A stretch of DNA of 64,000 bases from positions 1 to 64,000 of the forward strand of contig LLEY01000169.1 of assembly GCA_001414485.1 (NCBI GenBank). Direction: 5' to 3'. How positions within the stretch are numbered: position 1 is the stretch's first letter; each line of letters begins with the position of its first letter. The notes beneath the pieces are model-generated. The model saw nothing but the letters and a program-made list of their open reading frames with translations, was not told where the DNA came from and ran no database searches. The stretch is from Calycina herbarum (taxonomy: Eukaryota; Ascomycota; Leotiomycetes; Helotiales; Pezizellaceae). A program made the translations under genes and the position numbers. This document shows, in pieces, positions 18,830 through 46,097 of the stretch.

Positions 18830-20418
18830 GAAGCTAATATTATTTTAGTAACCTAAGAACTCGAAAACAACGCGTTATTAACTAAACAAAGCGCTATAAA
18901 GATTTACTATATTCCTTAAAAGACTCTCTCCGATTAACGTGCTAGAAAGCTCTTATAACGCGATTACTAGCCTAATTCGAAAAAGCTTATAAAGCTAGAG
19001 GAGGAGGTAATAGTTAGATATATATTAGAGTTAGATTTACAAGGGTTTTCGCCTATAAGGGATATAGTATAAGATATAGCTAATAATCTGCTAAGAGAGC
19101 GCGACGGAAAGCCTATAGACAGGAATTAGCTAGATAACTTTATAAAACGTATATCTAAGCTTAAAACTCGATGAAGTCGTTTATATAATCGTTAGCAAGC
19201 TTTAACTAAGGATCCGCGAGTTATTAGCCTATGGTTTACGCTTATACAGTCTATTAAAGAGAAATATAGTATTTAAGATAAGGATATTTACAACTTTGAC
19301 GAAAGTAGCTTTATAATAGGAGTTATTTCGTTCTAACTTATTATTACAAGCTTAGAAACGCGTAGGAAGCGAAAGCAAGTTTAGCTAGGTAATCGCGAGT
19401 AGGTTATAGTTATTCAGAGAGTTAATATAATAGAATAGGTAATCCTACTATTTATTATATTCGTAGGTAAAGTACTTATTTCTACCTAGTACTAAGACAT
19501 ATATATACTATACGATTAGGTAATTAAGGTTAGTAACAACGGTTAGATAAATAATAAGCTTAGAGTTATATAGTTAAAGTATTTTAATAAGTATATAAAA
19601 GTACAAAGTGTAGAAGGATATCGTTTATTAATTATTAATAGTTATAAAAGCTATAACTCGCTTGAATTCTAGTAACTCTATAAAGACTTAAACATTATTA
19701 CTCTCTATATACCTCTACACTTATCGTACCTACTATAGCTGCTTAATATAGTCTGCTTCTCGCTGTTAAAGCGAGCGTATAGAGCTAAGATATTAGGCTT
19801 AGCACGGAATTATATTAATTATATTACTAAAGAAACCTTTCTTCTCGCGTTTAAAGCAGCTTTTTATAAAGCATTTATAAAGGATAACATCTACGCGAGT
19901 TTTAAAGGGGCTAGGCTAGTCCTACACAGCCTAGAAGCTATGTTATTAAAGCTTGATTTAAGGCTTCGTATACTAATACTAACAATACTAGAAGACACTC
20001 TATAGACACCTAAAATACTAAGTAATATATACGAAATAATAGCTTAATCAACGCTTATTCGAGATCGGATTCAAAGATATTAAGACTTATTACCTAGTTC
20101 TATTATTCAGTCTCTTAATCAACTTAAAAAAGGCTTAACTAGGGTGATATATAATATAGTATTAATATACAAGGAAATTACTAGTCTTTGTATAATAACT
20201 AAGGCTATAACTAAGTGTAAAAGTTATAAGAGGAAGTATATTAAGAGTTAAGAGATATTAACAGTAGGCGACGTAGCTGATTTAATTATATCTAAGGAAA
20301 ATAGTAGCTAGAAACAAGGTAAAGAGTCTAGGAAGAGAGTTCGCGTAGACAGGTACTATAGCCGTTGTAGTAAAACTAGGTATAATTCTTATACTTATTA
20401 GATAGAAATATTAGATAT
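18830..20418 (+). pseudogene. RIPed pogo/Fot1-type transposase relic 1
   Basis: Reading the plus strand through many stops gives the order of a Fot1-like transposase: an HTH/CENP-B-like section (QEEE then ILELDL.GF), KEKYSI then NFDESSF (first DDE Asp), GNREQ/INIIE-like strand, the NSYKSYNS section matching the usual DGHxSH, then LHLSYLLQLLNIVCFSLLKRAY (third catalytic region, L.P.HSSHLLQPLD) and KAAFYKAFIKDNIYASFKGARLV. A Cys/His-rich tail is cut at 20418 by the LTR of element A. Most stops are TAG or TAA that would arise from CAG, CAA or TGG by transition. Confidence 0.75.
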
Positions 20419-20601
20419 TGTGACAGTCCCAGTCACATACGACTGGATCACGTGCCGAGGTTCTACCGAAGTCTCGCTTAGTGTACATAAATAGAGACAG
20501 AGCGTACCAACTCTCCTCTTCTCTCTTTAGTTTAGTTTTCTTCGAATATAGGTACTATTCTATAAGCATCTCTTTTAGTGTATTTATAGAGGGCTGTTAT
20601 A
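20419..20601 (+). repeat. 5' LTR of chromovirus A (183 bp)
   Basis: Begins TGTGACAGTCCC and ends GTTATA, which is the RIPed form of the GTCACA ending kept in the 3' copy; TGTGAC and GTCACA are inverted termini. It is the same length as the other three LTRs of this family and differs from them almost only by transitions. Confidence 0.9.
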
Positions 20602-23600
20602 CTAAAACTAAACTCACACTCTTGCCTAGGAAGGCATACGAATATCCTAAAACTGACGAACGAAAACACATATATTCACCTTATAACAAATCCCTTCGCA
20701 CGCGGTAACAAGTTACGACGCTCCTCTCTTAGCTAGCTCGATAAGCAATCGGACGAAGAGCCTCTACCTTTACCTTTACCTTTGCCACCTACTATTAACA
20801 CTAGCTCTCGAAAGACTAAGACCTCTTCCTAAGCTATAGCACCACCACCTCCACCTACTAGCAAGGCTACTGCTAGCTCTTCTACAGCAGCAAAGTCTAA
20901 GTCACCTCCTCCTCTTATAGTCGACGATGCCTTATAACAAATCCTTTAAACGATAACCACTCTTATAGATAAGGTCTACTACCTTAAAGTTAATACTAGA
21001 TCTACCTCTTAAGTAGCAGAAATACACGCACGCTGTGAATACACCTCTATAGAGCTTAAAGCTAAAAAGGTTACCTAATCCACTCCTGCTGCCTAGTCTT
21101 CTAAGAAGACTAGTAAAGTAGAGAATCTACGTACGTTTATAATAGAAGACGACCAGATCATATACAACAACTAGGAGACTGAAATTATAGTAAAGCTATA
21201 TATTAATACCGACTACTTCGAATCTAAGAAGGCAAAGATGAATCTGGTATATTGCGCTACTACTAGCTAAGCATGTGATTATATTTACCTAAAATATAAG
21301 TTCGATACTAACAACCGATTTACCACTTATAACGAGATGCTAGCTTACCTCTATAACATTATAGTTAGTCTATACGTTCGTAACAAGGCTTATAAGAAGT
21401 ACTAAGAGCTACGAATAGCTTAAGAGACGTTCTACGAGTTTCGAGCAAAGTTCTAGAAGCTAGTAGACAAGTCTAGGGCTCTAAAGCAAGATAGAATTAA
21501 CAACCTTTTTAATAAGTTAACTATCAACCTCTGACAAGCCCTTATAGTTATTAGACTTCAAGCTAAGAGAGACATAGACCTCTTTTATACTCTTGCTAGT
21601 AGCGTCGACAACGACCTATAAGATATTATAGAAGAAAAGGCTAGAAAGCATATAAGCAAGTATCTACCTACTACAGCTATAAATACAGCTATAGCTACAC
21701 GTTCTCTAGAAATTCCTGCTCGCGTAGCTAGTATTTACCCCTCTACTAACATGTATTACAACTATAGAGAAGTCAGCTATTATATCAAGTCCTGCCTATA
21801 GCTAAGAGTCTATAAGAAGGTAGACTTAAGCGAGCTAGAGAAAGAAGAAGAAGCTAGATCTAAGTCGGGAAACAAATATACCTAAGAGAAGACTCTACCT
21901 TAGGTAAATATAGGATTAATCTCTCTAAGATTAATCTATAGTTATTAGTTAGTAGAAAAGCGTTTACTTTACCTAGTATAATAATAATTAATAGATATAA
22001 TATATAAACCACTGCTCTTAGTAACCTAGGAGTAAATATATTCTCTTTTATAAACGCCTAATTCAGCTACGACTTAGCGAAGTTCTATAACCTTAAAATA
22101 AAAAGACTTCCTATACCTATAAAGATTCGCGAATATAATAGAGAGATTAGCAGAGAAGCTACTTACTACCTCCTCTCTAATTATATATTAGATAGCTATA
22201 AATTCTTTAATATACCCTTTATTCTACTAGACCTAGGATTATATAACGTTATCCTTAGCTAAAAATTCTTTAAATACTTTTATATTAATATTAACGTAAC
22301 TTATCGAAAGTTACTCTAGCTAGAGGAACTTAAGCCTTACTTCTCTACTTAGTAACCTATCTCTCTCTCGTATGAAGCTATTCGTCCTAAGGACCCTACG
22401 CTCTTTTACTAGAATTAGGCAGACGCTCGTAACCTTGTAATAGAAATAGACGAATTATAAAGATAGAATAGCTAATCTATTCTAGAACTCTATATAATAG
22501 AATATCTAGAATACGTACCTACGATCCGCGAAAGCAACTACTAGTCTTCTATATAAGTATAATACTAGATTATAAAACAGGAACTTAAGGGATTACCTAA
22601 GAAAGTACTTACCCTAGTCTATTAATAAAAGCCCTTTCTAAAGCAAGAACCTTCTATAATAATTAACATCTCTACTATATCCGTAGTAGGAATATACTAC
22701 TATTTACTTTAAGAAGATAGTAAGATGTTTACTACTAGCTTATACGAGATTAATAGTATTATAGCTAGATAAGAAGAGGATTGTATAGTAATACTAGAGG
22801 TTCTAGAGAAGTATATAGATTTTATAGACGTATTCTTAAAGGAAGCTTTAGATACCCTACTACCTTACTAATATTATAACTATAAAATATAGCTAGAAGA
22901 AACAGATACTCTTAGATATTCCCTACTATATAAGATGTCGACTAAAGAGCTACTTACTACAAAGGAATATATCTTAGACAACCTTTATAAGGGATTTATA
23001 AAGCATAGCCAGTCCCCTTTTACTACTCTAGTACTATTTATTAAGAAGGTAGACGGAAGATTACGCTTTTATATCGACTTCTAGAAGCTTAATAACCTTA
23101 CTTAAAAAGACTACTATCTACTTTCTTTTATTAATAAAACGCTAGCCTATATTAGTAAAGCTTATATCTTTATAAAACTCGATATCTATTAAGCTTTCTA
23201 TTATATACGAATAGATCCTGATTCTAAAGAACTAACTACTTTCTATATATGTTATAGAACGTATAAGTATAAGGTTCTACTCTTTAGACTTACGAATAGA
23301 CTATCTACGTACTAGTAGTATATAAACAACGTACTTTTCAACTATTTAGACGATTTCTACTCTACTTACTTAGACGACATCCTTATCTATTCTTCGAATA
23401 TATTAGAGTATGAGAAACATGTACGAAAAGTCTTCTAGCGACTATAAGATACTAGCTTATAAGTAGATATTAAGAAATACGAATTTAACGTCGAGAAGAC
23501 AAAATACCTTAGCTTTATTATTAGAACTAACAATATTAAAGTAGATCTAGAAAAAGTTATAGTAGTCTAGAATTAGTAAGCACTAGATATAGTAAAAGGT

Positions 23601-25914
23601 GTCTAGAGCTTCCTAGGCTTTTACAACTTCTACTAGAGGTTTATATAGAATTATAGAATTATTACAAAACCACTTACACGTCTTATAAAGGATAACGTAC
23701 CCTTTAACTTCGACAAAAGCTGCTAGGACGCTTTTAAGGAGCTAAAAGAATGCCTTACAACGGCACTAGTCCTTCGCTACTACTCTCTAAAGCTTCCTAC
23801 AATAATCGAGATAGACGTCTTAGACGGGATAATCGCTAGGATACTATAATAACAGTAAGCAGACAGCGAATAGTACCTAGTAGCTTACTTTAGTAAGGTC
23901 ATATCCTTAGCTAAGTATAATTACGAGATTTATAATAAAGAGATGCTTATAATTATACACTCGCTTACAGAATAGAGACTAGAATTACAAAGCATATACG
24001 AGAAAGTTCGTATTTATACTAACTATAAAGCACTTAAGTACTTTATAATAATAAAGCAGCTTACTATACGTTAAGCTAGATAGGCTAAAGCTTTAGCTGA
24101 ATACTACTTTATAGTAATATACTGTTCTAGAAAAGAGAATAGAAAGGCGGACGCTTTAATACGAAAAACGGACGAGTTATAGACTCAGAAGGAGCTAAAA
24201 GAATAATACTAGACCTATATACTCTTAACGAAAGAACAAGTCGATATAGAAACACTTAAAGACCTTAGAGTTGAAATAAGCTCTATTACGCTGGCTCTAG
24301 TCGACGACGACCACTTTTAGGAGTCTCTTACACTCTCTAAACGAATCTATAAAGTAAATAAGGATGCTAAGACACTTTAAGCTTTACGATTATAGGCTGA
24401 GAACGACGAAGACTCTCTATACGTCTTAGAGGAAGACCTACTACTTTATTAAGGCTGCTTAATAGTACTAGATATCGATACTTTATAGATAGACCTAATC
24501 TGTGAAGTACACGACTAAGTACTACTAGCCTACCCTAGATAAGACAAGACCTACTAGATCCTTTGCTCAAGATATATCTAGCGAAATATAAAGTCTAATA
24601 TTATATAATACGTATATAACTGTTATAAATGTCGAAGAGCGGATATACTAAGAGATAAGACCCTTGGTTATCTATACCTACTTCTAGTCCTATTATATAT
24701 ATAGTAACACGTGATAATAGACTTTAAATCCTTCCTAGCTAATAAGCACGGCTTTAATAATATATTTGTAGTTATTAACCGATTATCTAAATAATCTATC
24801 TCTATCCTATACTAAAAGGAAGTAACAGCTAAGTAGATAGCTAGGCTATACTTATAGCACGTATTACGATATTATAGAATCCTAGAGAGTATTATCTCTA
24901 ATAAAGGCCCTTAGTTTATCTCTACCTTCTAGCAAGAATTTACACGAATCCTCGACGTCCGGCTTTAACTTTCGACTATAAATCACGCCTAGATAGACGG
25001 ATAAACCGAAATTATAAACCAGTACCTAGATCAGCGCTTACAGCCGTACGTAAATTACTACCAGAATAATTAGTTAAAGCTACTTCTAATAATAGACCAC
25101 GCTTAGCTTATACTACCTTACAATACTATTAGAATGTCCTCGTTCGAATTACAAAAGGGCTACTTACTAAGAACGTCTTTTAACTAGTATACGCCTAAAC
25201 CCTCGACTATATAAGAGAGGCTATCATAAGAAGAAGCTACAACAGTTACAAAGACTCTTTAAGAAGTACTAGACGTCGGCTAAGCGAATATAGTAAAAGC
25301 TTAAGAAAAGAAAGAACGGAACGTGAATAGACATAGACGAGAAGTAGACTTTGAAGTCAGCGATATAGTTTTTATTACTACAAAGGACTAGAATACGTAA
25401 AGACCTAGCTAGAAGTTAGACCACTAGATAGCTAGACCTTTTAAGATCCTTAAGGAAGTTAGCTCTGCTTTTAGACTCTAGTTACTATCCTCTATTAGAG
25501 TCTATCCTGTCTTCGCACTAGAGAAGTTATACAAAGCTTTAGACAATCCTCTGCCTAGACAAGTAAGTACGCTACCTCCACCGATTATCGTCGACAAAGA
25601 AGAAGAATAAGAGGTTAAGGAAGTACTTACAAGTAAGACGCGATAGAAGTCTCTTTACTACCGATTAAAGTAGAAGGGCTATAACGAGGACCTTGACTAG
25701 CACCTAGCTCGCTACGTAGCCTACTCGCTACATATGTTAAAGGAATTCTATTTAGCGAATCCAACAGCTGACAGGCCTCCAAAGGCTCTTCCTTTGTAGC
25801 TAGAGGCGTACGAGGCAGGAAGAGACAATTACAGCGAATTAGAGAGTAACGACCCTATGGCTACGGAAGACAAAGCGGCTTAGTTAGAGAGGGCCCGGTT
25901 AAAGGAGGGGGTGG

Positions 25915-26097
25915 TATAACAGTCCCAGTCACATACGACTGGATCACGTGCCAAGGTTCTACCGAAGTCTCGCTTAGTGTATATAAATAGAGACAGAGCG
26001 TACCAACTCTCCTCTTCTCTCTTTAGTTTAGTTTTCTTCGAATATAGGTACTATTCTACAAGTATCTCTTTTAGTGTATTTGTAGAGGGCCGTCACA
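25915..26097 (+). repeat. 3' LTR of chromovirus A (183 bp)
   Basis: Begins TATAACAGTCCC (RIPed TGTGAC) and ends GTCACA. It follows the polypurine tract with no gap. It contains the TATAAATAGAGACAG string, a likely promoter TATA region. Confidence 0.9.
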
Positions 26098-26499
26098 GTA
26101 GCTCTAAGTACTCTAAATATACTAGAAAAGGCAAGTCTTACGATATTAAGAAGTAGAACTGAATACTCTTAATTTTCGAGTAGAAATCTCTTAATACTTA
26201 GAAGTAACAGTTATAATAGAAGAAGAAGGTAGCTTATAAGATTTAGAAAGAAGCTATATAGAAAATCCTCTAACTATAGAAACAGTAACACTTTCTTACT
26301 AAGCAGGAGTAAGAGATACTCCGTCGTAGTCTTACTAATCTATAAGAGCTTAATAAAGCTAAAGAGAGAGAAAAAGAAGAGAAAGAGTAGAGAGATATAG
26401 AGGTTATCTAGCTAGTAGTCTCTTCTTTCTCTAATAGCTCTGCTTTTGTTATTAAGCTATCTCTTAATTTAGCTTTTCTCAAAGCCTTCTCTTCTAACT

Positions 26500-27498
26500 A
26501 CGAGATATAAGTAACTCTAGGTTTTAGTAGTAGAACTTCTGAAGTTTCTCTAAGTACTAGTTGAGATTTTTCCTAGGTTTCTAAGTATTCTCTAAGTATA
26601 GATAATCTAACTATTTAATTAAATACTTAACTTATCTTCTAATAAGTCTATAGTTAAGAATTCTTTTAACCTTATACTTAGCGTTTAGGTTTACTAGTTG
26701 AATTTCTATAAGTAGAGCTAGTAGTACTTCTAGTAGTACTAGTTTAAGTAAAGATATATAGAATACTAGGTAGATGTTTATTATTCGTAGTAATACTAAT
26801 TTATAATTTAAAGATTCTCTAACTTATTTAATTTTAAATAGTCTAAGTTTTTTATAATCTAGTTTATTACTTAGTCTTTTTATTTTAATATTTTTTTATA
26901 CTAAGTAGACTTTATTCTTCTCTTTTAATATTAGCTTCTAACTACGTTATTAGTTATAATAGTATATATTTCTTTTAGATATAAACTATAAGTCTTTTAT
27001 AAGTTCTTTATATAATCTCTTAATTTTTAAGACCTAAATATAAGTAAGCTAATTATTAATAGTCGTAGGTAATAGTTCTTAATATACTACTAGTTTATAC
27101 TTAAAGTTAGTATAGAATAGTATAATAAGTATTATTTCTATTACTAAACTATTATAAGTAAACTATACTAAGAGTAGTAGCTCTACCTAGTTATTTTACT
27201 AATAGTTTATATAATAACAAAGGTATGTCTTAACTACTTAATTTATCTATTCGTTTCCTCTATTTATCTATAGATAAAAAGCTATAGAAAGCTTTCTTTT
27301 CGTACCTAGTCGTTTTATAAGAGCGATTTAAAATTTAAAAGTAAAGAGTTTATCTCTGTCTAAGAGTATTTCTTCTAGTAGTCTATATCTTAAGACTACT
27401 TCTTTAAGGAATATAAATACTAATTCCTTAGCTATACTTGACTTTATATATAGTACTAGAATTATATATTTCGTAAGTCGTTCTATAATAACTAGGAT
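26500..27498 (-). pseudogene. Integrase and chromodomain remnant of chromovirus C
   Basis: Read on the minus strand from 27498 this gives ILVIIERLTKYIILVL, then DRDKLFTFKF and RLGTKRKLSIAF, the usual order of a Ty3/gypsy integrase core (VIVDRLTK, DRGSxFTSxFW, LGxxxxxSTAxHPQ), followed by a chromodomain-like section at about 26540-26660. The sequence is a different family from A and B. It is cut at 27498 by element B; the upstream part of the same element resumes at 33187. Confidence 0.7.
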
Positions 27499-27681
27499 TA
27501 TAACAGCTCTCTATAAATATATCAAAAGAGATACTTATAGAATAGTACCTATATTTGAAGAAAACTAAACTAAAGAGAGAAGAGGAGAGTTAGTACGCTC
27601 TGTCTCTATTTATATATACTAAGCGAGACTTCGGTAGAACCTTAGTATATAATCTAGTTGTATATAACTAGGACTGTTATA
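27499..27681 (-). repeat. 3' LTR of chromovirus B (183 bp)
   Basis: Left boundary TATAACAGCTCTC and right boundary GGACTGTTATA are the RIPed complements of the A-family LTR ends. Length is identical to the other copies. Confidence 0.88.
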
Positions 27682-30600
27682 CTACCCTCTTCTTTAACCG
27701 GGCTCTCTCTAACTAAGCCGCTTTGTCTTCCGTAGCTATAGAGTCGTTACTCTCTAATTCGTTATAATTGTCCCTTCTTACCTCGTACGCCTCTAGCTAT
27801 AAAGGAAGAGCCTTTAGAGGCCCGTTAGCTATTAGATTCGCTAAATAGAATTCCTTTAACATATATAGCGAGTAGACTACGTAGCGAGCTAGGTACTAGT
27901 TAAGGTCCTCGTTATAGCTCTTCTACTTTAATCGGTAGTAAAGAGACTTCTATCGCGTCTTACTTATAAGTACTTCCTTAACCTTCTATTCTTCTTCTTT
28001 GTCGACGATAATTAGTAGAGGTAGTATACTTACTTATCTAGGTAGAGGATTATCTAAAGCTTTATATAACTTCTATAGTATAAAGACAGGATAGACTCTA
28101 ATAGAGGATAGTAACTAGAGTCTAAAAGCAGAGCTAACTTCTTTAAGAATCTTAAAAGGTCTAGCTATCTAGTGGTCTAACTTCCGGCTAGGTCTTTACG
28201 TATTCTAGTCCTTTATAGTAATAAAAACTATATCGCTGAATTTAAAGTCTACTTCTCGTTTATGTCTATTTACGTTCTATTCTTTCTTTTCTTAAGCTTT
28301 TACTATATTCGCTTAGCTAACGTCTAGTACTTCTTAAAGAGTCTTCGTAACTGTTATAGCTTCTTCTTATAATAGCCTCTCTTATATAGTCGAGGGTTTA
28401 GGTATATACTAGTTAAAAGACGTTCTTAGTAAGTAGCTCTTTTATAATTTAAATAGAGATATTCTAATAGTACTATAAAGTAGTATAAGCAAAGCGTAGT
28501 CTATTATTAGATATAGCTCTAACTAATTATTCTAGTAGTAATTTATATATAACTATAAGCGCTAATCTAGGTACTAGTTTATAATTTTAGTTTATCTATC
28601 TATCTAAGCGTAATTTATAGTCGAAAGTTAAAGCTAGACGTTAAGGATTTATATAAATTCTCGCTAGAAGGCAGAGATAAACTAAGAGCCTCTATTAGAG
28701 ATAATACTCTCTAGGATTCTATAATATTATAATATATACTATAAGTATAGCCTAGCTATCTACTTAGCTATTACTTCCTTTTAGTATAGAATAGAGATAG
28801 ATTATTTAGATAATTGGTTAATAACTACGAATACGTTATTAAAGCCGTGCTTATTAGCTAGGAAGGATTTAAAGTCTATTACTACGTATTACTATATATA
28901 TAATAGAACTAGAAGTAGATATAGATAACTAGAAGTCTTATCTCTTAGTATATTCGCTCTTCGACATTCGTAACAGTTACGTATATATTACGTAATATTA
29001 GACTTTATATTTCGCTAGATATATCTTAAGCGAAGGATCTAGTAGGTCTTGTCTTATCTAGGGTAGGCTAGTAGTACTTAGTTATATATTTTATAGATTA
29101 GGTCTATCTATAATATATTAATATCTAATACTATTAAGCAGCCTCGATAAAGCAGTAGGTCTTCCTCTAAGACGTATAAAGAGTCTTCGTTATTCTTAGT
29201 CTATAATTATAAAGCTTAAAGTATCTTAGTATTCTTATTTACTTTATAGATTCGTTTAGAGAGTATAAGAGACTTCTAGAAGTGATCGTCGTCGACTAGA
29301 GCTAGTATAATAGAGCTTATTTCGACTCTAAGGTCTTTAAGTACTTCTATATTAACTTATTCTTTTATTAAGAGCGTATAGGTCTAGTATTATTCTTTCA
29401 GCTTCTTCTAAGTCTATAACTCGTCTGTTTTTCGTATTAAAGCGTCTGTCTTCTTATTCTCTTTTCTAGAACAGTATATAACTATAAAGTAGTATTTAGC
29501 TAAAGCTTTAGTCTATCTAGTTTAATGTATAGTAAGCTGCTTTATTATTATAAAGTACTTAAGTACTTTATAGTTAGTATAAATATAAACTTTTCTATAC
29601 GTGCTTTATAATTCTAGTCTCTATTCTATAAGCGAGTATACGATTATAAGTATCTCTTTATTATAAATCTTATAATTATACTTAGCTAAGAATATAACCT
29701 TACTAAAGTAAGCTACTAGGTACTATTCACTGTCTGCTTACTATTGTTATAGTATTCTAGCGATTATCCCGTCTAAGACGTCTGTCTTAATTATTATAAG
29801 AAGCTTTAGAGAGTAGTAGCGAAGAACTAGTACTATTATAAGGTATTCTTTCAGCTTCTTAAAAGCGTTTTAGTAGCTTTTGTTAAAGTTAAAGAGTATG
29901 TTATTCTTTGTAAGACGTATAAGTAGTTTTATAATAATTCTATAATTCTATATAAACCTTTAATAGAAGTTATAAAAGCCTAGAAAGCTTTAGACGCTTT
30001 TTACTATATCTAGTACTTACTAATTCTAGACTATTATAACTTTTTCTAGATCTACTTTAATACTATTAGTCTTAATAATAAAGCTAAGATATTTTGTCTT
30101 CTTAATATTAAATTCGTATTTCTTAATATCTACTTATAAACTAGTATCTTATAGTTATTAGAGAACTTTTTATATATATTCTTTATACTCTAATATATTT
30201 AAAGAATAGATAAGAATGTCGTCTAAGTAAGTAGAGTAGAAATCGTCTAAATAGTTAAAAAGTACGTCGTTTATATACTACTAGTACGTAGATAGTCTAT
30301 TTATAAGTCTAAAGAGTAGAATCTTATACTTATACGTTCTATAATATATATAGAAAGTAGTTAGTTCTTTAGAATTAGAATCTATTTATATACGATAGAA
30401 AGCTTAATAGATGTCGAGTTTTATAAAGATACGAGCTTAACTAATATAGGCTAGTGTTTTATTAATAAGAGGAAGTAGATAGTAGTCTTTTTAAGTAAGA
30501 TTATTAAGCTTTTAGAAGTTAATATAAAAGCGTAATCTTCTATCTACCTTCTTAATAAACAGTACTAGAGTAGTAAAAGAGAACTAGCTATACTTTATAA

Positions 30601-33003
30601 ATCTCTTATAAAAGTTATCTAAGATATATTCCTTTATAGTAAGTAGCTCTTTAGTTGATATCTTATATAATAGAGAATATCTAAGAGTATCTATTCCTTC
30701 TAGCTATATTTTATAGTTATAACATTAGTAAGGTAGTAGAGTATCTAAAGCTTCTTTTAAGAATACGTCTATAAAATCTATATACTTCTCTAGAACCTCT
30801 AGTATTACTATATAATCCTCTTCTTATCTAGCTATAATACTATTAATCTTATATAAGCTAGTAGTAAATATCTTACTATCTTTCTAAAGTAAATAGTAGT
30901 ATATTCCTACTATAGATATAGTAGAGATATTAATTATTATAGAAGGTTCTTACTTTAGAAAGAGCTTTTATTAATAGACTAGAGTAAGTACTTTCTTAGA
31001 TAATCTCTTGAGTTCTCGTTTTATAATCTAGTATTATACTTATATAGAAGACTAGTAATTGCTTTCGTAGATCGTAGATACGTATTCTAGATATTCTATT
31101 ATACTAAGTTCTAGAATAGATCGGCTATTCTATTTTTATAATTCGTCTATTTCTATTATAAGGTTATAAGCGTCTACTTAATTCTAGTAAAAGAGTATAG
31201 AGTTCTTAAGACGAATAGCTTTATACGAGAGAGAGGTAGGCTACTAAGTAGAGAAGTAAGGCTTAAGTTTCTCTAGCTAGAGTAACTTTTAATAAGTTAT
31301 GTTAATATTAATATAAAAGTGTTTAAAGAATTTTTAGCTGAGGATAACGTTGTATAACCCTAGGTCTAGTAGAATAAAGAGTATATTAAAGAATTTATAG
31401 CTATCTAATACGTAATTAGAGAGAAGGTAGTAAGTAGCTTCTCTACTGATCTCTCTATTATATCTACGAATCTTTATAAGTATAGAAAGTCTTTTTATTT
31501 TAAGATTATAGAACTTCGCTAAGTTATAGCTAAACTAGACGTTTATAAAAGAGAATATATTTACTCTAAGGTTATTAAGAGTAGTAGTTTATATACTATA
31601 TTTATTAATTATTATTATACTAGGTAAAGTAAACGCTTTTCTACTAACTAATAACTATAGATTAATCTTAGAAAGATTAATCTTATATTTACCTAAGATA
31701 GAGTCTTCTCTTAGGTATAGTTGTTTCCTAACTTAGATCTAGCTTCTTCTTCTTTCTCTAGCTCGCTTAAGTCTACCTTCTTATAGACTCTTAGTTATAA
31801 GCAGGACTTGATATAATAGCTAACTTCTCTATAGTTATAATATATATTAGTAGAGAGGTAAATACCAGCTACGTAAGCAGGAATTTCTAAAGAACGTGTA
31901 GCTATAGCTGTATTTATAGCTATAGTAGATAGATACTTACTTATACGCTTTCTAGTCTTTTCTTCTATAATATCTTATAAGTCGTTGTCGACGCTACTAG
32001 TAAGAGTATAAAAGAGGTCTATATCTCTCTTAGCTTAAAGTCTAATAACTATAAGAGCTTATTAGAGGTTAATAGTTAACTTATTAAAAAGGTTATTAAT
32101 TCTATCTTACTTTAGAGCCTTAGACTCGTCTGCTAGCTTCTAAAACTTTGCTTAAAACTCGTAGAACGTCTCTTAAGCTATTCGTAGCTTCTAGTACTTC
32201 TTATAAGCCTTGTTACAAATATATAGACTAACTATAATATTACAGAGGTAAGCTAGTATCTTATTATAAGTAGTAAATCGGTTGTTAGTATCGAACTTAT
32301 ATTTTAGGTAAATATAATTATATACTTAGCTAGTAGTAGCGCGGTATACTAGGTTTATCTTTATCTTCTTAGATTCGAAGTAGTCGGTATTAATATATAG
32401 CTTTACTATAATTTTAGTCTTCTAAGTATCGTACGTAATCTAGTCGTCTTCTATTATAAACGTACGTAGATTCTCTACTTTACTAGTCTTCTTAGAAGAC
32501 TAGACAGTAGGAGTAGATTAGGTAACCTTTTTAGCTTTTAGCTCTATAGAGATATATTCATAGTATACGTGTATTTCTACTACTTAAGAGGTAGATCTAG
32601 ATCTAGTATTAACTTTAAAGTAGTAGACCTTATCTATAAGAGTAGTTATTATTTAAAGGATTTATTATAAGGTATTATTAATAGAAAGAGAAGAAGATAA
32701 CTTAGTTACTACTATAGAAGAGCTAGTAGTAGCTTTACTAGTAGAAAGAGGTAGTAGTATTATAGCTTAGGAAGAGGTCTTAGTCTTTCGAGAGCTAGTA
32801 TTAATAGTAGGTAGTAAAGATAAAGATAAAGGCTCTTTATTCGATAGCTTATTAAGCTAGCTAAGAGAGGAGCGTTATAACTTGTTACCGTATATAAAGA
32901 GATTTACTATAAAGTAAATATATATACTTTCGTTCGTAAATAGCGTTGTCTATTTTAGGATATTCGTATACCTTTCTAAGTAAGAGTATAAGTTTAGTTT
33001 TAG

Positions 33004-33186
33004 TATAACAGCTCTCTATAAATATACTAAAAGAGATACTTATAGAATAGTACTTATATTCGAAGAAAACTAAACTAAAGAGAGAAGAGGAGAGTTAGTA
33101 CGCTCTGTCTCTATTTATATATACTAAGCGATACTTTAGTAGAACCTTAGTATATAATCTAGTCGTATATAACTAGGACTGTTATA
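33004..33186 (-). repeat. 5' LTR of chromovirus B (183 bp)
   Basis: Same ends and length as the left copy. It carries extra transitions, for example GCGATACTTTAGTAG where A has the less mutated form. Confidence 0.88.
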
Positions 33187-33269
33187 AGAATAGTTTACTA
33201 ATTAATAATTCTATTCTAGTATATAACGTCTATTCTATTAACTACTCTAAGACGGTATAGCTTTATATC
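33187..33269 (-). pseudogene. Protease continuation of chromovirus C
   Basis: If the solo LTR next to it and one copy of its ATATC duplication are removed, the minus-strand reading continues from the protease section on the other side in the same frame (LNVLIKDI then KLYRLRVVNRID). That matches the usual continuation of a gypsy aspartic protease region. It ends at element B. Confidence 0.6.
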
Positions 33270-33732
33270 TATTATAAATTATATACTTATATATAACTAG
33301 TGAAATCTAGGCGACGCTCTAATAGAACAAGCAATACTAGAACCTAGAAAGAAGAAGGAAGGATTAAATATAGAGAATATATAATCCGTAGATCTTATTA
33401 TATTTATATTACGTAACTCGGTTAGAAGTAGTTAGATAATAGAGTCTAGTTTCTAGGAGCCTTAGAATTAAAGTCGGACTCTATCTTTAGAACTCTTATA
33501 AGAACTAGACTTTAACTAGAACAGAAGATTCTATATAAGACTAGCACGTCTGCTATTAGATAGAAGCTTCGTACTTAACTTTAGTTATTAATCTTATTAT
33601 CTTATTTAATATCTTTAATATAAGTAACAAGTTTACTTCTAAGTAAATAACCCGGTGTATCTATACTTCTTATCTATATACTAACCTTCGAGACTTAGTT
33701 ACCTTTGTTTAGTTTGTTTAAGTTTCGTTATA
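33270..33732 (+). repeat. Solo LTR of the chromovirus C family with ATATC duplication
   Basis: This 463-base copy is an inverted match to the C LTR at 35997-36452: both share a TAGATAGAAGCTTCG-type core and a GTTTCGTTATA end. It is flanked by ATATC at 33265-33269 and again at 33733-33737, a perfect five-base target duplication, so it inserted independently and then lost its internal part by LTR-LTR recombination. Confidence 0.8.
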
Positions 33733-35900
33733 ATATCTTTAATTAGAACGTTTAGCTTCTTTAGAGCTATTAGAGAAAGGAAATTACCTATTACTCTAGA
33801 GTTAATTATAACTCGAAGTTTCTTTTCTTATATTCTCGTAGTTATAATTAACTGATTTTCTCTAGAGATAGCGTTTAATTCTTTTTTTATAAAATATACT
33901 TTAAATCTTTACTTATTCTCTTCTTTCTAACTAGATTTTAGAATGAAGGTTACTTTCTCTAAATCTATAAAGGCTATCTTATATATTAATCTATATTCTA
34001 TAGTTTATTCTAGTTCTAGTAAGGTTCTAATAAATCGTTTTTTTATAGACTAGTTAGATATAGGATTTAAATAATATTATATCTATTTAGCTATAGTTCT
34101 ATTTATTATTTTAATAGACTATAACTCTCTAACTATTAGATAATAAAGCTTCTTCTATACTATCTCTGTTTCTTATTTAATATTATATTTATTTATTTCT
34201 TAAAAGATTATACTAAATAATCTTCTATTTCTAGGATTTTAGAATATTACTCTAATATTACTAACTAAAGCGGCTATAGTATACTAGCTCTCTATTTCTA
34301 GTATCGTTTCCTTATTACTAGGTAACGTACTTAAGAAACTAGGTTTCAGTTATTCTATAAAATCTCTACAACTCTACTACTACTATAAGCTGGTTTCTTC
34401 CTATAGGTCTATAACTATCTAAATATCTTCTATCTTAGGCTAACTAGATATCTTAATCTGTTTCTAACCGTGTTTAGGTTCCTTAAACTTAATAGTTTCT
34501 TAGCTTATAACTAGACTAACTATAGTTATTATTTTAAGATTATTCCTAGTAATAGTATATATTATTAGAATAGTAGGTTTAATACTCTAAGTAGTATAAG
34601 GGTTTAAGAAGTTAGGCTTCTAGTTATCTATACTTACTTATTAGTTTCCTTATTTAAAGATTCTAGTAAAGGCCTAAGTTTCTCTAACTTCGGTACTTAT
34701 ATCTCTAGTTTCTTCTTTCTATTTAGAAGATAAGTCTAATAATTCTAAGGAATTAGTTAATAGTAGTGATTTATACTCTACTTAAAGAGGTAGTTCGTAT
34801 TCTATTTCTAATCACGTATTATAATATTCTTTAAAAAGTAGATCTCTATTATTACTAATGTCTTATACCTCGCTAACTTATAACTCGATTTCTTTATTAT
34901 ACTCGATCTACGTACTATATTCTCTAGCCTCGAGCTTAGCGTCTATAAGTTCGATTCGATCGAGTAATACTACTTCTATTTAAATAGTAGTATTAACCTA
35001 TTTCTTTCCTTTCTAGGATTTCGTTTTCTTCTAGCTATAATTAGTTACTCTATAGCCTAGTTTACTATAGATATAACAGAGTTACTAGTCTCGTCGCCGG
35101 TTACGTTCCTTCTAAGAAAGTCCGTTTCTTTCTAAAAAGATCTTTTTCTATATAGCGTTTATTATCTTACTATACTTATTAGTATAGACGTGTTTCTACT
35201 TTCCTAATCTCTTACTCTTTCTCTATATCTAGGGTTACTCTTTCTAAATTTATATAAACGATTATCTAGCTAGATAACCTTCTTAATTATACTTATAATA
35301 GTTTAGAACTATATATTCTATTTAGCTATTTCCTTATAAATATATATCTTTAATCCTCTATAAAAGAGTTTTATAAGAGCGATAGTATTCTATTCTGATT
35401 TCGTCTTATAACGTTGGAATTTATTAGTATAATCTATTACTAATCTAGTTTAGTATAAATCTAAAAGCTTATATATAGTAGTTTAGATTATATCGAAGTC
35501 TCTAAAGACTTTTCTAATAGTTACTTTAAATCCTCTCTAAGATTTAAATATAATCTTAGTTATCTTTATCTTTCTATCTTTATTCTTATTTCTAAAGAAG
35601 TTTTCTAAATATAGCTAAGCCTATTCTAATACTAATTCTCTAAGGTAGGAGATAGTAAAGATAGTCTATAAGTTATAATTGCTTTTAAATTTATCTAAGT
35701 TAAAGTTAAAGTAGATATCTATTTAGAGAAGAAACGAGTCGAGTTTCTTACGCTTTCTATAATACGTATCTAGTATTTTAACTTTAATAGACTTAAGTAC
35801 TTCAACCTTATAAAGCTCGGAAGCGTCTAGTATACTAACGTTGTTATCGTTCCTAGCTAATTATATACTAGCAGGTGTTCCTCTAGTAACACTTCTAGAT
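33733..35900 (-). pseudogene. Gag and protease remnant of chromovirus C
   Basis: On the minus strand from about 35830: a capsid-like retrotransposon gag section (RGFKVTIRKVFRDFD, then VIDYTNKFQRYKTKSE, then LFYRGLKIYIYKEIAK), a zinc-knuckle remnant at about 35045-35100 (CYIYSKLGYR, Cys and His partly lost), and a protease section near 33750-33850 (NSRVIGNFLSLIALKKLNV, the GNFL and LGV positions being recognisable). Reverse transcriptase and RNase H of this element are missing between the protease and the integrase. Confidence 0.75.
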
Positions 35901-35996
35901 ACTCTTATAATATTAACTCGACTAGTATTTAAGCTAGCAGCGGCGGCGAGGGTTACTAGAGCTATAGCGACTAAACTTCTAAGCAAGTGTTTAAAG

Positions 35997-36452
35997 TATA
36001 ACGAAACTCAAATAAACTAAATAAAGGTAACTAAGTCTCGATAGTTAGTATATAGGTAAGAAGTATAGATATACTAGGTTATTTACTTAGAAGTGAACTT
36101 ATTACTTATATTAAAGATATTAAGTAGGATAATAAGATTAATAACTAAAGTTAAGTACGAAGCTTCTATCTAATAGCAGACGTACTAGTCTTATATAGAA
36201 GCTTCGTCTCTTCTAGATAGATAGAATCGTCTGTCGTTCTAGTTAACTAGATCGCCTAGATCGCTAGTCGACCTAGGTAATCCTTTATATTATATAACCT
36301 CTAATATACTTCTAATAGTAAGATCCTAGAATCTCTAAATACCTCTATATTATAGATTCCCTTCTATATTACCTTCTATTTCCTAGACGTTATATCTTAT
36401 TCTATTAGAGCGCTATCTAGACTACTTACTACGTAAAACGTAATTCGTAACA
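35997..36452 (-). repeat. 5' LTR of chromovirus C (456 bp)
   Basis: On the minus strand it begins TGTTACGAATTACG at 36452 and ends CGTTATA at 35997, directly upstream of the gag remnant. Its inverted partner is the solo LTR at 33270-33732. Confidence 0.75.
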
Positions 36453-37215
36453 CTGTCTTATTATTAGTCTATCTATTACTTATCGGCTTTATAACCTGAT
36501 TATATAGTAGGCCGCTCTTAGTATACTAACTAGTAAGATAGTTTTTTACTTTAACTACTAAAAATAGTAGTATACTCGAACCTTCTCTATTAATATATAT
36601 AATTACTATAGCTTATTCTCGATTACTAGGTTAAACAGCTTTGTCTCTACTACGTTAATCTGTATATATAACAACTATAGCAAAGCTAATTATACCTATT
36701 ATAAAGCCGGTCTTATTAAAGTTTTAAAAGTCGTAGTCTTAAATACTATATTTCGCTTATATATTCTCTACTAGCTGGAACTATATTCTAATAAGCTTAG
36801 GATCTTTATATAAGGCTTTTTAAAAGTCGTAAACGTGATTAAAACACGTCTTTAACTCTAGACGTCGTTATATAAAGTGTTAAGCCTAGTTCTTTCTAAT
36901 ACGTTATTCTCTATATAACTCTAGTATATAATTTACTATATCTTCTATACTAGCTAACTAAGGCCTAAATCCTCTTATATCTAGATTAAATATATATTAA
37001 ATAATTACTTTCTTCTCTAGTTTAGTTAACTTATAACTTACTAGTCGACGTTTACTAAGAGTTATATAGCTACTTATTCTATTAGAAAGCGTAGATTTAG
37101 ATACTTTATATATCTTAGTAGTAGCGCGACTACTAAGTTTTTTTATTATTCGAATAGCTTCGATAGCTAAGATAATTCGTACTTCTTAAGAATAGGTTTC
37201 TATTACTAATTATTA
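36453..37215 (-). pseudogene. RIPed pogo/Fot1-type transposase relic 2, truncated
   Basis: Minus-strand reading from about 37215 gives an HTH-like N-terminus (AIEAIRIIKKLSSRATTKIY), the CENP-B-like section (LEKKVII then IFNLDIRGFRP), KEKYSI-like AKYSI, then FNKTGFIIGIIS, which corresponds to the first catalytic Asp region, and SNREQAIVI. It stops at the C-family LTR at 36452, so the second and third catalytic regions are missing here. Confidence 0.65.
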
Positions 37216-37838
37216 AGAATTTATATATTAAGGTTAGAAGGTAGTAGAGTAAGGAAAAGTGTTCGAGGTTCTAAGATATTTAGAGTTCTAGTATACTACG
37301 TTACTTAGTTTATTAAGAAAATAATCTAAAATACTTAGAATAACTAAATTAAAATATAATAGTTACTAGAAAACTTGAAAAATAAAAATATTTATTTATT
37401 AAACTTTTCTTTATTACTTTATCTACTTAATTTAAAATTTAAAATTTTTTAAAATACTTTTATTTAATAGATATCTTTTAGATAAAAAGTAAACAATAGT
37501 ATATACTTTTAATCTAAAGATTATTAAATTTATTCTATTACTTAAAATATCTTAGAAAATTTAGTTAAGTCTAGTAATAGAGAAAAGTAAGATATATAGA
37601 TCTAACTACTTTTAAGTATTCTATTAAGTCTTATATTTTAGTTTAGTTATTCTAACTCTCTTATATAATATTATTTAGTAAATAAGACTAAGATAATAAT
37701 ATAGCCGCTTATAAATAAGTAGAGAATAGTATATTTCTCAATTTCTCAAAGTCTTATTATTTATTACTAGAAAGTGTATAGAATTCAAGGATTTATTAGA
37801 ACTTCTAAAACTCTAAATACATATACCTAAATTCCATC

Positions 37839-39298
37839 TCAATAGTTATTATCTTCTACCCAATCCCTATGAATCCCAGGTCTGGTAGCTTCAACAGCAG
37901 CATCATCGGTGTGCCAGGCAGAGCGACTATTCTCAGTTAGTTAACTGCTTCTTTGTCAATACAGTGAGGAAATGCTTACCAGAAAGGACAATTGCGCATA
38001 TAGCGCGGCTTGCCTTCGTGCCAGGTCCGGATGCACCCAGAATGAGCGTTTTGACCACAGGTTAAGCACCAGGTTGCCTTTGATGGGTTGGTGAGGGCGT
38101 CGCTGAAGTCGGTGTAGCAAATGGCGCAGTGATCGTCAAGTGGCATTCGTGGCATTCGACGAGCTGATTGGACAGGAGGGTGTGACGCTGGACCAAAAGG
38201 CAGAGGGAAAGGATTTTGCAGAAATTCACCGTTTTGGCGAGCGGTTTGGCGAGCGGACGGTTGGAGTGCGGGAACATGCGTGGGAAAATCCCAGTCGAAG
38301 ATACTATTCCCTCGTAGAAGTAGTTCAAGTTGAGATATTGGTCGCTCTTCGGTTCGTTCGTGAGCCTGAAGGTATCTGTAAGGGTCGATCGACTCGAAAT
38401 CGATGCCAAGGTAGTTGCTCCAAGCTAAAAGTGGTGCACGAGCATGTTCCATAATGCTATCCAGTGTCACCAACGCTAGTCCCGACAAATCATATGTCCC
38501 GTTCCCGATATTCGCTCGTATAATGGTTATGTGCTCTAGTACTTGATGTACAATTGTTCCTGCTGCTGCCAATCGTATCTGCGTTGAGCCAGCGTCTGGC
38601 GCCTCCTCCTCTATTTGAGATTGCCGGATAGCATCTAGCATCTCATATAAGCTGGCCTGACGTGCGTTGGAAAACTCGTCGACAAATTGATCCAAGAAGA
38701 TAGGGCAGCGTAGATCCCAATCAGTCTCTAGTTGGTTCATTCGTTGTTCTTCCATCCTCCATTGAGTATCCAAGTTATCGAGCTCGATTTGTCGAAGGGT
38801 GAGTTGTGAAGCTAGCATTTCAATACGTTCAAAATGCGCAATCCCCTCAAAATGCGCAATCACCTCAAGGCGCGCGATCCCTTCTTGAAGTGTCCGGCGG
38901 CGTGTTAGGTATCTTCGATGGTCGTCGGAAAATTTTCTGCGGCTATGCTCATGCTCTAGTATCGCTAGTGCGTCTCGCAGTTGGCTTCCAACACGTTGCA
39001 GCTCCCAGTAGACCTGAAACTGATAACTGCTGTTCTCTCTTGGAGTGTATGGACCGTGAGGTCGGGATTGCATCAACTGTTCCCAGTCTTGGTTGTACAG
39101 GGTGATATTTTGGAGAGTAGGAAGACTTTGAGGTTCGGCGCGTGGTGTAGGTTGTCCATTAGGCGTCGTTGGCTGAAGTCGGTTTGTTTGGGGTGCGGTG
39201 GTTGATTGAGATTGTTCAAGTGTTACATCATGTTCATTCATGAATGCGACCGTCTCCTGCATAGCCGGAATGATATCATCAGGGGGCTCTCTCTCCAT
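37839..39298 (-). CDS. RING-type zinc finger protein, hypothetical
   Basis: Exons 39298-37980 and 37926-37839 give 468 residues. The C-terminal zinc finger is CAIC at 391-394, CLTCGQNAHSGC in the middle and CPFC completed across the intron at 437-440, a RING-like ligand pattern, which suggests E3 ubiquitin ligase activity. Without the intron the last Cys would be lost. A Glu/Arg/Gln-rich helical region at about 95-215 looks like coiled coil; the repeated IAHFE phrases at about 144-156 show a small internal duplication. The N-terminus is Pro/Thr/Gln-rich and disordered. The gene lies at the very edge of the RIPed block yet keeps normal codon use. Target unknown. Confidence 0.8.
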
Positions 39299-43150: not shown

Positions 43151-43409
43151 TCAAGCAGTGCAAATGTCACAAAAGACCTCGAATCCCTACCACAATAGAG
43201 TAAGTTTCATGGATTGCTATGCGAGATAAAAATTTACTTACAAGATTCTTGCCCGGTGAATCGGTGCAGTTATTGGAAAGTGGAAATTGTCTCTGGATAG
43301 CCCAAAGAACAGTTGTGAATGAGTAGTCGAACACAATTGGGGCGAGAGGTGCCTCAACCCGATAGAGCTGGATGATATCTATGAAGGATCATAAGTTAAT
43401 GAAGCCGTA

Positions 43410-43452
43410 ACCGATTTCCCTGGACTGTGCACGCCCCTGGACTGTGCACGCC
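43410..43452 (+). repeat. Left TIR of the pogo-family element
   Basis: Begins ACCGATTT and contains two direct copies of a 17-mer (43418-43434 and 43435-43451), a possible double transposase-binding site. Confidence 0.9.
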
Positions 43453-43574
43453 CCCTCAACCATTTCACTAAATCACTTAAAATGTATATATTTCAACAAC
43501 TACACATTAGATTTGTATGTAATTAAGTAGGAAGATCAATGAAGGGTAGTTAATTGTATATTAAGTACAAAAAT

Positions 43575-45502
43575 CTATGCGCGAGCACGAAGAGGTAGCC
43601 TAATCTGGCGTCCAGACCTAGTTTCCCGCAAAAGTGGGGCTACCTCTTGAGGCTGGAACTTGACCTTGGGAACAACTATTCTACTTGGCTTTTCAGCCTT
43701 TTTAGAAGCCTTTTTAGACTCTTTCTTGACTTGAGGCATCCTTGGAGCAGCCTTTTTTGATGTAATGTGTATAGACTTCTTCTGCTTTAGGGCCTGGGGA
43801 GTTATAGCAGCCAGCTCCCTCTGAAGCTGCTTTCTAGTCCTCTTATTGGCTAATTCCTTAGCCTTTTTGCTCTTAAGAAGTGCCTTTGCCTTTCGTTTAA
43901 CTCTCCTCTCTTCTTTTGCTTCTTCTTCTTGCCTTGAAAGTTCTTCTTTCTCTTGCTGATTTACCCTAGCTTTCATAACCTGCCCTAGGGAGTATACTTC
44001 TACCCCCTTACTTTCTTCCCTACAAAGATTAAGTCTCTTTCCTTTCTTCCGTTTCTGGTTTTCAAGTATAATAGCTATCTTAAGTCCCTTATTTTTATGA
44101 GAAAGAACACTTACTTGACTTAAGAGAGTAAGAACTGAAGAGAAGACCTTGTTTGCTTTGAGTTTTAAGAGCGATTTCTCAAAGTCTAAGTAGGCTCGTC
44201 GAATTGCTTTTAAAGTAAGGGGTGTTTTCAAGCCTTTAGAAGTCGTACGAAGAGGCGAAGGAGGCTTCGTCACTTGGTCTATTATCTTTTGGCTAGTAAT
44301 AGGCCAAATTCCAGGCTTTTGGAAAGCGTATGTGATATTTCGCTCTATAAAAGCCTTGTCCTATGCTGCCTTGAACATTGTGTAGAAAAATCGCTTTGAC
44401 ATTGAGACTAGCCCTCGAGAAGTAGACATTAAATTGTCTAACTGGTTTGAGTAGAAGGCTGAGAGAGGACCGAACAGGCCAACGTCTAGAGGCTGTAACC
44501 GGTGGGTTGTATAAGGAGGAAGGATTATGATAATAATTCAGTAGCGATCTGTAAAGTCGATAAACTTTATATTAATATACGAGGAGTGGCCGTCTACGAG
44601 GAGGAGTCGGTAGGCCCTTAGAGACTTCGGTTTTATATGCTTTTCGAACACTTTTTCTAGCTACTTAAGGCCAAAGTCGTTCGAGGACCAGCCGTTCTCT
44701 GAGGAGCCGAAGTATACTCCGGAATGCTCTATGACGTCTACGAGCTAGGAATCCTAGAGACATCCAGAGCTTCCTTTATATATAAGGAGTGGTGGGATCG
44801 CTCGTCTAATAGCTGAAATATACGCAAGAAGTGAGATAAACTCCCGAGACCTATCCTACTTGTTTTTAGTAACCCGACCTAAATTATACGCCCTAAGGCT
44901 TATTATACGCTTTATAGAACGACTAAAACTAATAAGGAAGCCCTTTTCGTCAAAGTTATAGAGGTTATCGGCTATAATTTGGAATTTCTCGATAATAGAG
45001 GTTAACTATAAGTAGCGAGTAATATTAGCTTTTATAAGGAAAGGAGCGATAAGTAGTAAAAAGAGAGTAAATACCAAGGCGAAGAAGAGAGTAAACATAG
45101 GCGTATACTCGGCTATAACCCTTAAATTCTCAATATTCTTAAGATAACCGCTGTGTAACCTGTCCTTATGCCGCTGGATAAAATCCCCTATCTAGTTCTT
45201 TCCAACCTCCCTTCCACGTATCTCTTCAGCGAGGTTTCAGACGATTGACGAAGTAGGCGGCATTCCACGCTCTATAAGCCTATTTATCTGCCGAATTAGG
45301 ACCTCCTCTTACTCCTTAGTTAATGCTTGAAGGTAAAAAGCGGTGGCCTCCCTACGTGTCTTAGTCAAGCCCCTAACCCTCCGTGAAACCGTAGAACGGT
45401 CACATCTATACTTCTTCGCAGCATCAGCATAATTACTCACTTCTCCCCTTTCGATTGCTGCCACCGCCTGGTTAATCCGATGAGTATTGTCTGCTCTAGC
45501 CA
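43575..45502 (-). pseudogene. pogo/Fot1-family transposase with in-frame stops
   Basis: Starts MARADNTHRINQAVAAIERG with a psq-type HTH (YADAAKKYRCDRSTVSRRV). A TAA at 45309 replaces an expected Gln codon. Further on come the CENP-B-like part (LIERGMPP then GKNWIGDFIQRHKDRL), NFDEKGF (first catalytic Asp), VDGHSSY (second) and LPPYTTHRLQPLDVGLFGPL (third). The C-terminal 232 codons (44273-43575) are open, very Lys-rich and end in RSGRQIRLPLRARA. Stops in the middle third are TAA/TAG/TGA of RIP type, so the protein is not made at full length. Confidence 0.85.
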
Positions 45503-45544
45503 TAATTAAAGTGGGAGAGTGGGTAGAAAGTGAGGCTATTTTGA

Positions 45545-45587
45545 GGCGTGCACAGTCCAGGGGCGTGCACAGTCCAGGGAAATCGGT
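45545..45587 (-). repeat. Right TIR of the pogo-family element
   Basis: Exact inverted copy of the left terminus, including both 17-mers; the inner sequence diverges after the shared TCAA. Confidence 0.9.
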
Positions 45588-46097
45588 TACAGGGTAAGAG
45601 ATTGAAGTGCAAATTACCCGCAAATCGAGATTTTGAAGATGAGATCCCCTAACGCCGTAACCAACGCCTGTAGTGTTCCAAGGAGTACCAGCAACCTGCT
45701 TTGCAAGAACACTAAAGTTCTGCTCTGGTCCCATGAGGACAACTAGATTAAAAGATTGCGTCAACTATACGAACAAATTGTGGGATTCTTGGGAGCTGGA
45801 GTTACCTCAGAGATTGTAGCCAGCTTTAACGATATCTGCGGCATCTGCTCGGAGACCAGCATCGACAACAGAGGAATTAAATCCTTGAGATGTGACGAGT
45901 GGGTGATAAGGCGGGAGTCCTCTAATATATCAAAAGTTAGCGTTTCCACTCTGTTTAGGTCGAATACTTAGGTGATAGACGCACGTAAAGACAACGTTCA
46001 ACTCTCCGCAAGCTGGATTTTGGTTACAATTTGGGAGGGTTGCAGCAGCTGCACAGACAACGGAGCCGAGAAGTACACGGAAGTTGGACAAGACCAT

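What the first reader, a model, noticed from the sequence alone, without database searches (positions are those of the whole stretch)
43151..46097. pogo-family transposon sitting exactly in an intron of a gene of unknown function
The 2,178 bp element has 43 bp identical TIRs and TA duplications. The host exons on both sides join in frame (LDLR then LYRVEAPL) with normal splice ends, so the insertion enlarged an intron of about 70 bases to about 2.25 kb. An intron insertion can be spliced out and tolerated, but it also places a RIP-prone duplicated sequence inside a gene.
Basis: partly seen in the sequence, partly recalled or inferred. Interest (0 to 1): 0.75.

Follow-up and report, generated by a model that had tools for sequence, protein, structure and literature searches.

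The report
Dead transposon inside a dead gene
A fungal jumping gene, itself full of stop codons, sits in an intron of a gene that is also broken by two other mutations, so the tidy in-frame splicing that made it look interesting is an illusion; it is a good but ordinary example of transposon and gene decay.

Summary
The transposon is real: 2,178 bp, two perfect 43-bp inverted ends, TA on each side, a pogo/Fot1-type (DD35D, Pfam DDE_1) transposase on the minus strand. It does sit in an intron, one whose position is conserved in homologs. The rest does not hold. The host gene is not intact: it has an in-frame stop at 45809-45807, where the 33 of 34 homologs that reach the site have Arg or Lys, and a 7-nt shortfall in exon 3, where 30 of 31 homologs spanning the stretch keep one spacing. 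The element is dead too: 10 in-frame stops, and its closest copies differ almost only by transitions, without indels, the signature of RIP. One exon used as query found no second host copy. Best reading: an RIP-scarred Fot1-type copy in intron 3 of a recently lost gene in a Helotiales-like fungus. Which loss came first is not resolved. Ordinary, modest interest.

The parts
43410..45587 (-). pogo/Fot1-type DNA transposon, 2,178 bp, RIP-scarred copy
43410..43452 (.). terminal inverted repeat (3' end in transposase sense), holds a tandem pair of a 17-bp unit
45545..45587 (.). terminal inverted repeat (5' end in transposase sense), 43 of 43 identical to the other
43408..43409 (.). TA target-site duplicate
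45588..45589 (.). TA target-site duplicate
43575..45503 (-). broken transposase frame (DD35D, DDE_1), 10 in-frame stops starting at 45311, 45239, 45194, 45008, 44858, 44756, 44747, 44663, 44540, 44363; the C-terminal 261 codons (43575-44360) are stop-free
45985..46097 (-). host gene exon 1 (ATG at 46097; hydrophobic N-terminus by eye)
45806..45921 (-). host gene exon 2, with a premature stop just before its end
45807..45809 (-). in-frame stop where the 33 homologs (of 34) that reach the site have R (29) or K (4)
45618..45742 (-). host gene exon 3, 7 nt short near 45627-45628 relative to homologs (frameshift)
43379..45617 (-). host intron 3, phase 1, 2,239 nt with the element, 59 nt without
43242..43378 (-). 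host gene exon 4
43151..43186 (-). host gene exon 5 with terminal stop

Best explanation
A Fot1-type pogo element inserted by cut-and-paste at a TA dinucleotide inside the 59-nt, phase-1 third intron of a five-exon gene (shown: ends, TA, intron position; cut-and-paste follows from the family). The copy cannot make transposase: its frame has 10 stops (shown), most of the kind that C-to-T/G-to-A mutation by RIP makes (RIP as cause is inferred from the spectrum). The host gene is a pseudogene with a premature stop and a 7-nt frameshift in its exons, besides the insertion (shown by comparison with homologs; loss of function inferred). Its other residues are still well conserved, so the loss is recent (inferred). 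Whether the insertion or the exon lesions came first is not known; a 2.2-kb insert in an intron of about 60 nt is a plausible first cause, through failed splicing, after which the other lesions would be neutral (inferred).
For: Ends and TA. Transposase family: 225 homologs at E<=0.001, and the 120 listed carry PF03184, read by eye; the window frame passes the DDE_1 cut-off with stops read through (59.7 bits, cut-off 22); catalytic D's in place with 35 residues between 2nd and 3rd, as in 5 of 5 relatives measured. RIP-like state: window against L010 201 of 204 and against L011 217 of 217 differences are transitions, no gaps over 2,178 bp. Stop sites against 40 of the 120 listed relatives: at 6 of 10 sites the relatives that cover the site are nearly all Gln or Trp (nt 277 Q 3 of 3; 394 W 3 of 3; 730 Q 38 of 40; 841 W 40 of 40; 925 W 38 of 40; 1225 W 35 of 40). 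Host lesions: stop, 33 of 33 reaching homologs have R or K; spacing, 30 of 31 spanning homologs. Intron 3 position: homologs translated without splicing run from R-[FL]-x-G into unrelated sequence and 5 (P0013, P0020, P0026, P0027, P0029) come back at D/E-I/M-I/V. Window exon 3 has a second frame that reads SRFAD, continued IIQLYR across the CATAG acceptor, the homologs' reading. One match for exon 3 in the assembly.
Against: No RNA data. No orthologous DNA was available, so the empty site in a relative and the order of events are untested. The lesions rest on one assembly and could in principle be sequence errors. The homologs are 42-65% identical, not sister species. Stop sites nt 832 (Q 15 of 40), 1048 (R 18, G 18 of 40), 580 (Q 2, L 2) and 349 (K, H, R one each) are mixed in relatives. 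Homolog P0018, whose prediction leaves out the whole exon-3 stretch, and P0022, which reads RFAVLAL without the G, do not fit the junction pattern; both are single gene predictions.
Confidence: 0.85

Rival explanations
1. One reading: a working gene tolerates the insertion because the enlarged intron is spliced out, joining LDLR to LYRVEAPL.
For: The CCAG acceptor does join exons 3 and 4 in frame.
Against: A stop lies upstream in exon 2; the junction skips six residues present in all 15 aligned homologs; unspliced homologs place the intron one base into the next codon, which fits the CATAG acceptor.
Confidence: 0.04
2. A shorter protein is still made: translation starts at the Met in exon 3 (MGPEQ...) after the stop, and the cryptic CCAG acceptor cancels the 7-nt frameshift.
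For: 7 nt missing plus 11 nt skipped is 18 nt, a multiple of three, so the frame is restored; the remaining residues are well conserved.
Against: It would lose nearly the N-terminal half, with the conserved GLPPYHPLV and GYN segments, and needs a 2.25-kb intron spliced in a gene whose other introns are 55-63 nt. A third of such combinations would restore the frame by chance.
Confidence: 0.05
3. The two host lesions are assembly or sequencing errors and the gene is intact apart from the intron insertion.
For: Single assembly; all 29 invariant residues kept.
Against: Two lesions of different kinds in one gene of about 175 codons; the neighbouring OMP decarboxylase frame is open over 269 codons.
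Confidence: 0.08
4. A refinement of the best explanation, not exclusive of it: the insertion is younger than the gene's death, and the element landed in an already neutral pseudogene.
For: Perfect TIRs and few private C>T/G>A changes in this copy (5, against 71 in L010 and 83 in L011) fit a young insertion, though a copy spared by later RIP would look the same.
Against: Nothing dates the host lesions; the residue conservation says they are young too.
Confidence: 0.4

Closest known systems
Fot1 subfamily of pogo elements (Tc1/mariner superfamily), fungi
   Same: TA target site, TIRs, DDE_1 transposase with 35 residues between the 2nd and 3rd catalytic D, fungal host. PMC7325037 (passages seen) gives DD35D for its pogo groups 33-40 and names Fot1 as clade 37, mainly fungal.
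   Different: This copy is inactivated by 10 stops. Its ends hold a tandem 17-bp pair; whether that is usual in Fot1 was not checked.
RIP-inactivated transposons of Hymenoscyphus fraxineus and relatives (Helotiales)
   Same: Transition-only differences between the closest copies and stops at Gln/Trp sites; PMC8254937 (passages seen) reports 92.9% of TE sequence in H. fraxineus as inactivated by RIP.
   Different: That paper's emphasis is LTR elements; here it is a mildly affected Tc1/mariner copy inside a gene. In contrast, PMC4188875 (abstract and outline seen) found no evidence of RIP in Tc1-Mariner elements of Sclerotinia sclerotiorum.
aoxB alleles in Aspergillus niger (PMC10219456, passages seen)
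   Same: One dispensable fungal gene lost through several kinds of lesion, transposon insertion, frameshift and nonsense among them.
   Different: There the insertion is a Ty1/copia retrotransposon in a separate allele, and one allele has frameshift plus nonsense; here all three lesions are in one allele and the DNA transposon is in an intron.

Membership tests
pogo/Fot1 (Tc1/mariner) | TA target-site duplication and terminal inverted repeats | tested here: met
   TA on both sides, TIR 43 of 43. Of 13 further loci scanned, 5 had both ends located (L010, L011, L013, L014, L021), TA at both; 8 had one end located, TA at 7, not at L020
pogo/Fot1 (Tc1/mariner) | DDE_1 (PF03184) catalytic domain | tested here: met
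   59.7 bits against a cut-off of 22, stops read through; the 120 listed of 225 homologs carry PF03184
pogo/Fot1 (Tc1/mariner) | DD35D spacing | tested here: met
   35 residues between 2nd and 3rd D in the window and in 5 of 5 relatives measured
pogo/Fot1 (Tc1/mariner) | CENP-B-type DNA-binding domain (PF03221) | tested here: inconclusive
   Full-length relatives P0074 and P0115 have it, P0036 does not; the window's N-terminal piece gives only sub-cut-off HTH matches
pogo/Fot1 (Tc1/mariner) | placement in the Fot1 clade by phylogeny | not tested
   no tree was built
autonomous (active) transposon | intact transposase frame | tested here: not met
   10 in-frame stops
RIP product | C>T/G>A bias, CpA preference, no indels among copies | tested here: met
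   Against L010 and L011 only; private C>T/G>A changes at CpA/TpG: 44 of 71 in L010, 51 of 83 in L011; in the window copy 3 of 5. The five more distant copies differ from the window by 122-125 transversions as well
RIP product | made by the premeiotic RIP machinery of this fungus | not testable with these tools
   Seven DNA_methylase (PF00145) matches in the genome, not resolved into RID or others
pseudogene | disabling lesions relative to conserved homologs | tested here: met
   stop and frameshift
pseudogene | no functional product | not testable with these tools
   needs RNA and protein data

The most novel reading that the evidence does not exclude
The copy was already RIP-damaged when it jumped here: RIP kills the transposase but can spare the ends, so dead elements keep being moved by another element's transposase, and RIP-scarred copies spread into genes. 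In the window copy all 10 stops are shared with L010 or L011 (7 with both), its private C>T/G>A changes number only 5, and its TIRs are perfect. A shuffle of the stop sites does not make the sharing significant (7 shared by all three, 4.9 expected, P = 0.12), and shared RIP hot spots could explain it.
Probability: 0.3. Interest if true: 0.45.

Novelty: new member of a known kind. Interest (0 to 1): 0.22.

Why it matters
It shows how an in-frame junction can mislead: a cryptic acceptor cancelled a frameshift and hid a lost gene. For fungal genome biology it is one clean case of a transposon, a nonsense change and a small deletion in the same conserved gene of unknown function, whose order population data could resolve, and one more RIP-scarred copy with perfect ends, which bears on whether RIP stops transposition or only autonomy.

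Tried and rejected

RIP before or after transposition: outgroup-polarised counts looked like shared ancestry (117 C>T/G>A sites derived in all three copies against 3 in the window copy alone), but the control in the opposite direction gave 117 shared sites too (61 against 52 and 47 against 42 at stricter cut-offs), so many of these are plain subfamily differences. At CpA sites L010 is derived at 92% of the sites derived in the window copy against 51% of the others, L011 at 90% against 66%. The stop-site shuffle was not significant. Left open.

RIP leaking into the host exons: the 5' host side is slightly TpA-rich but within the range of comparable windows; not supported.

Rfam: no match at gathering scores in the window. 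A viral-contig scan with the neighbouring OMP decarboxylase found no relative. Seven paper searches were answered; I make no claim that this is absent from print.

Full report
The element. The window lies in an unnamed 68.8-Mb assembly of 379 contigs. At 43410-45587 there is a 2,178-bp element with two 43-bp inverted ends that match at all 43 positions, between TA dinucleotides. Each end holds a tandem pair of a 17-bp unit. Searching the genome with 601 bp of it gave 41 matches, itself included, the others at 93% to 68% identity; this is a lower bound. Thirteen loci were fetched. In five (L010, L011, L013, L014, L021) both ends were located and all are next to TA; in eight only one end was located, next to TA in seven and not in L020. 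Searching proteins with the frame, X at each stop, gave 225 relatives among the 7,999 candidates scored, and the 120 listed carry DDE_1, read by eye. The catalytic aspartates are in place with 35 residues between the second and third, the spacing that PMC7325037 (passages) reports for the pogo groups that include Fot1. So 'pogo family' is right; clade placement by tree was not tested.

The element is dead. The transposase frame has 10 in-frame stops, all between element positions 277 and 1225. Against 40 of the 120 listed relatives, six sites are nearly all Gln or Trp where covered; the other four are mixed: nt 832 (Gln 15 of 40), nt 1048 (Arg 18, Gly 18 of 40), nt 580 (Gln 2, Leu 2), nt 349 (Lys, His, Arg one each). 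The two closest copies, L010 and L011, have the same length without a gap, and 201 of 204 and 217 of 217 differences from the window copy are transitions, the signature of RIP. L010 and L011 have 30 and 28 stops in the same frame. Of 150 scored DDE_1 matches in this genome (801 candidates), 5 have no stop inside the matched stretch (counted by eye).

The host gene. On the minus strand from ATG 46097, 34 homologs were found at E<=0.01, 42-65% identical, none with a Pfam domain. The organisms named are ascomycetes (my knowledge of the genera); most names are 'hypothetical' or 'uncharacterized', and two UniRef names say 'Glycoside hydrolase'. For the neighbouring OMP decarboxylase the best relative after the window itself is unnamed (87%); among named ones are Glarea lozoyensis (73%) and Hymenoscyphus albidus (81% over 77% of the query), so I infer a Helotiales-like fungus. 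In H. fraxineus the host homolog (HYFRA_00004679, P0010) and the OMP decarboxylase (HYFRA_00004663, P0172) are listed on contigs of the same length, 1,651,922 bases; 16 tag numbers apart there, next to each other here. I infer a conserved neighbourhood and orthology.

Lesion 1. Exon 2 holds a stop codon at 45809-45807, one base before its donor. Of 34 homologs, 33 reach this site and have Arg (29) or Lys (4); P0029 starts after it. Homologs translated without splicing read NLRG or NLKG there, so the donor position is conserved.

Lesion 2 and the true junction. All 15 aligned homologs have six more residues at that place, such as FGDIVQ or FADIIQ. Homologs predicted without introns (P0013, P0020, P0026, P0027, P0029) run from R-[FL]-x-G into unrelated sequence and return at D/E-I/M-I/V; P0019, P0025 and P0031 run into the intron and end; P0022 (RFAVLAL) does not fit. 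So the intron is in phase 1, G|AT. The window has this: its exon 3 read in another frame ends SRFAD and continues IIQLYR across the CATAG acceptor at 43379. The frame that begins exon 3 and the frame that ends it differ by a 7-nt shortfall near 45627. Of 31 homologs that span the stretch, 30 have one spacing; P0018 lacks the whole stretch in its prediction, while P0005, from the same species name, has it; P0032, P0033 and P0034 do not show it. With the conserved acceptor the intron is 59 nt empty and 2,239 nt with the element; the others are 63, 63 and 55 nt.

How recent. I infer that the gene was under selection until recently. The host exons are not outliers for RIP indices among comparable windows. 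One match to exon 3 was found in the assembly, the window itself, so no spare copy is seen, with the limit that one exon of 42 residues was the query.

Mechanism. Shown: insertion at TA in a real, conserved intron; broken transposase; broken host frame. Inferred: the element arrived by its own transposase before RIP or by that of another copy; RIP caused most of its stops; the large insert may have impaired splicing and released the gene from selection, or the gene was lost first. The data do not order these.

Movement after RIP was examined because the copy combines stops with perfect ends. All its stops are shared with L010 or L011, but a shuffle gives P = 0.12, and the reverse-direction control weakens the polarised counts. 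It stays possible, not shown.

Verdict. A genuine Fot1-type element in a genuine intron, in a gene that by its sequence no longer works. The finding's attraction, a tolerated intron insertion in an intact gene, is not supported.

Noticed in passing
18000-38000: AT-rich block, GC 0.26-0.37 in 2-kb steps; over 26000-38000 TpA/ApT 1.80 and substrate index 0.15, typical of a heavily RIP-mutated repeat block.
   Followed up: partly
43575-44360 (minus): The C-terminal 261 codons of the transposase are free of stops while the centre holds all 10: of 19 comparable stop-capable sites after element nt 1225, 0 are stops in this copy, 11 in L010 and 9 in L011. RIP-like damage is mosaic.
   Followed up: partly
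43418-43454 and 45545-45579: Each element end holds a tandem pair of a 17-bp unit, possible paired transposase-binding sites.
   Followed up: no
12057-13256 (minus): MT-A70-type methyltransferase gene (PF05063, E 1.4e-32).
   Followed up: no
homologs P0001-P0034: A fungal family, mostly of about 165-190 residues, without a Pfam domain, with a confidently predicted alpha/beta fold and invariant GYN, GPE and G-x-G-x-G-x-R residues in 21 aligned members: uncharacterised, possibly enzymatic.
   Followed up: partly
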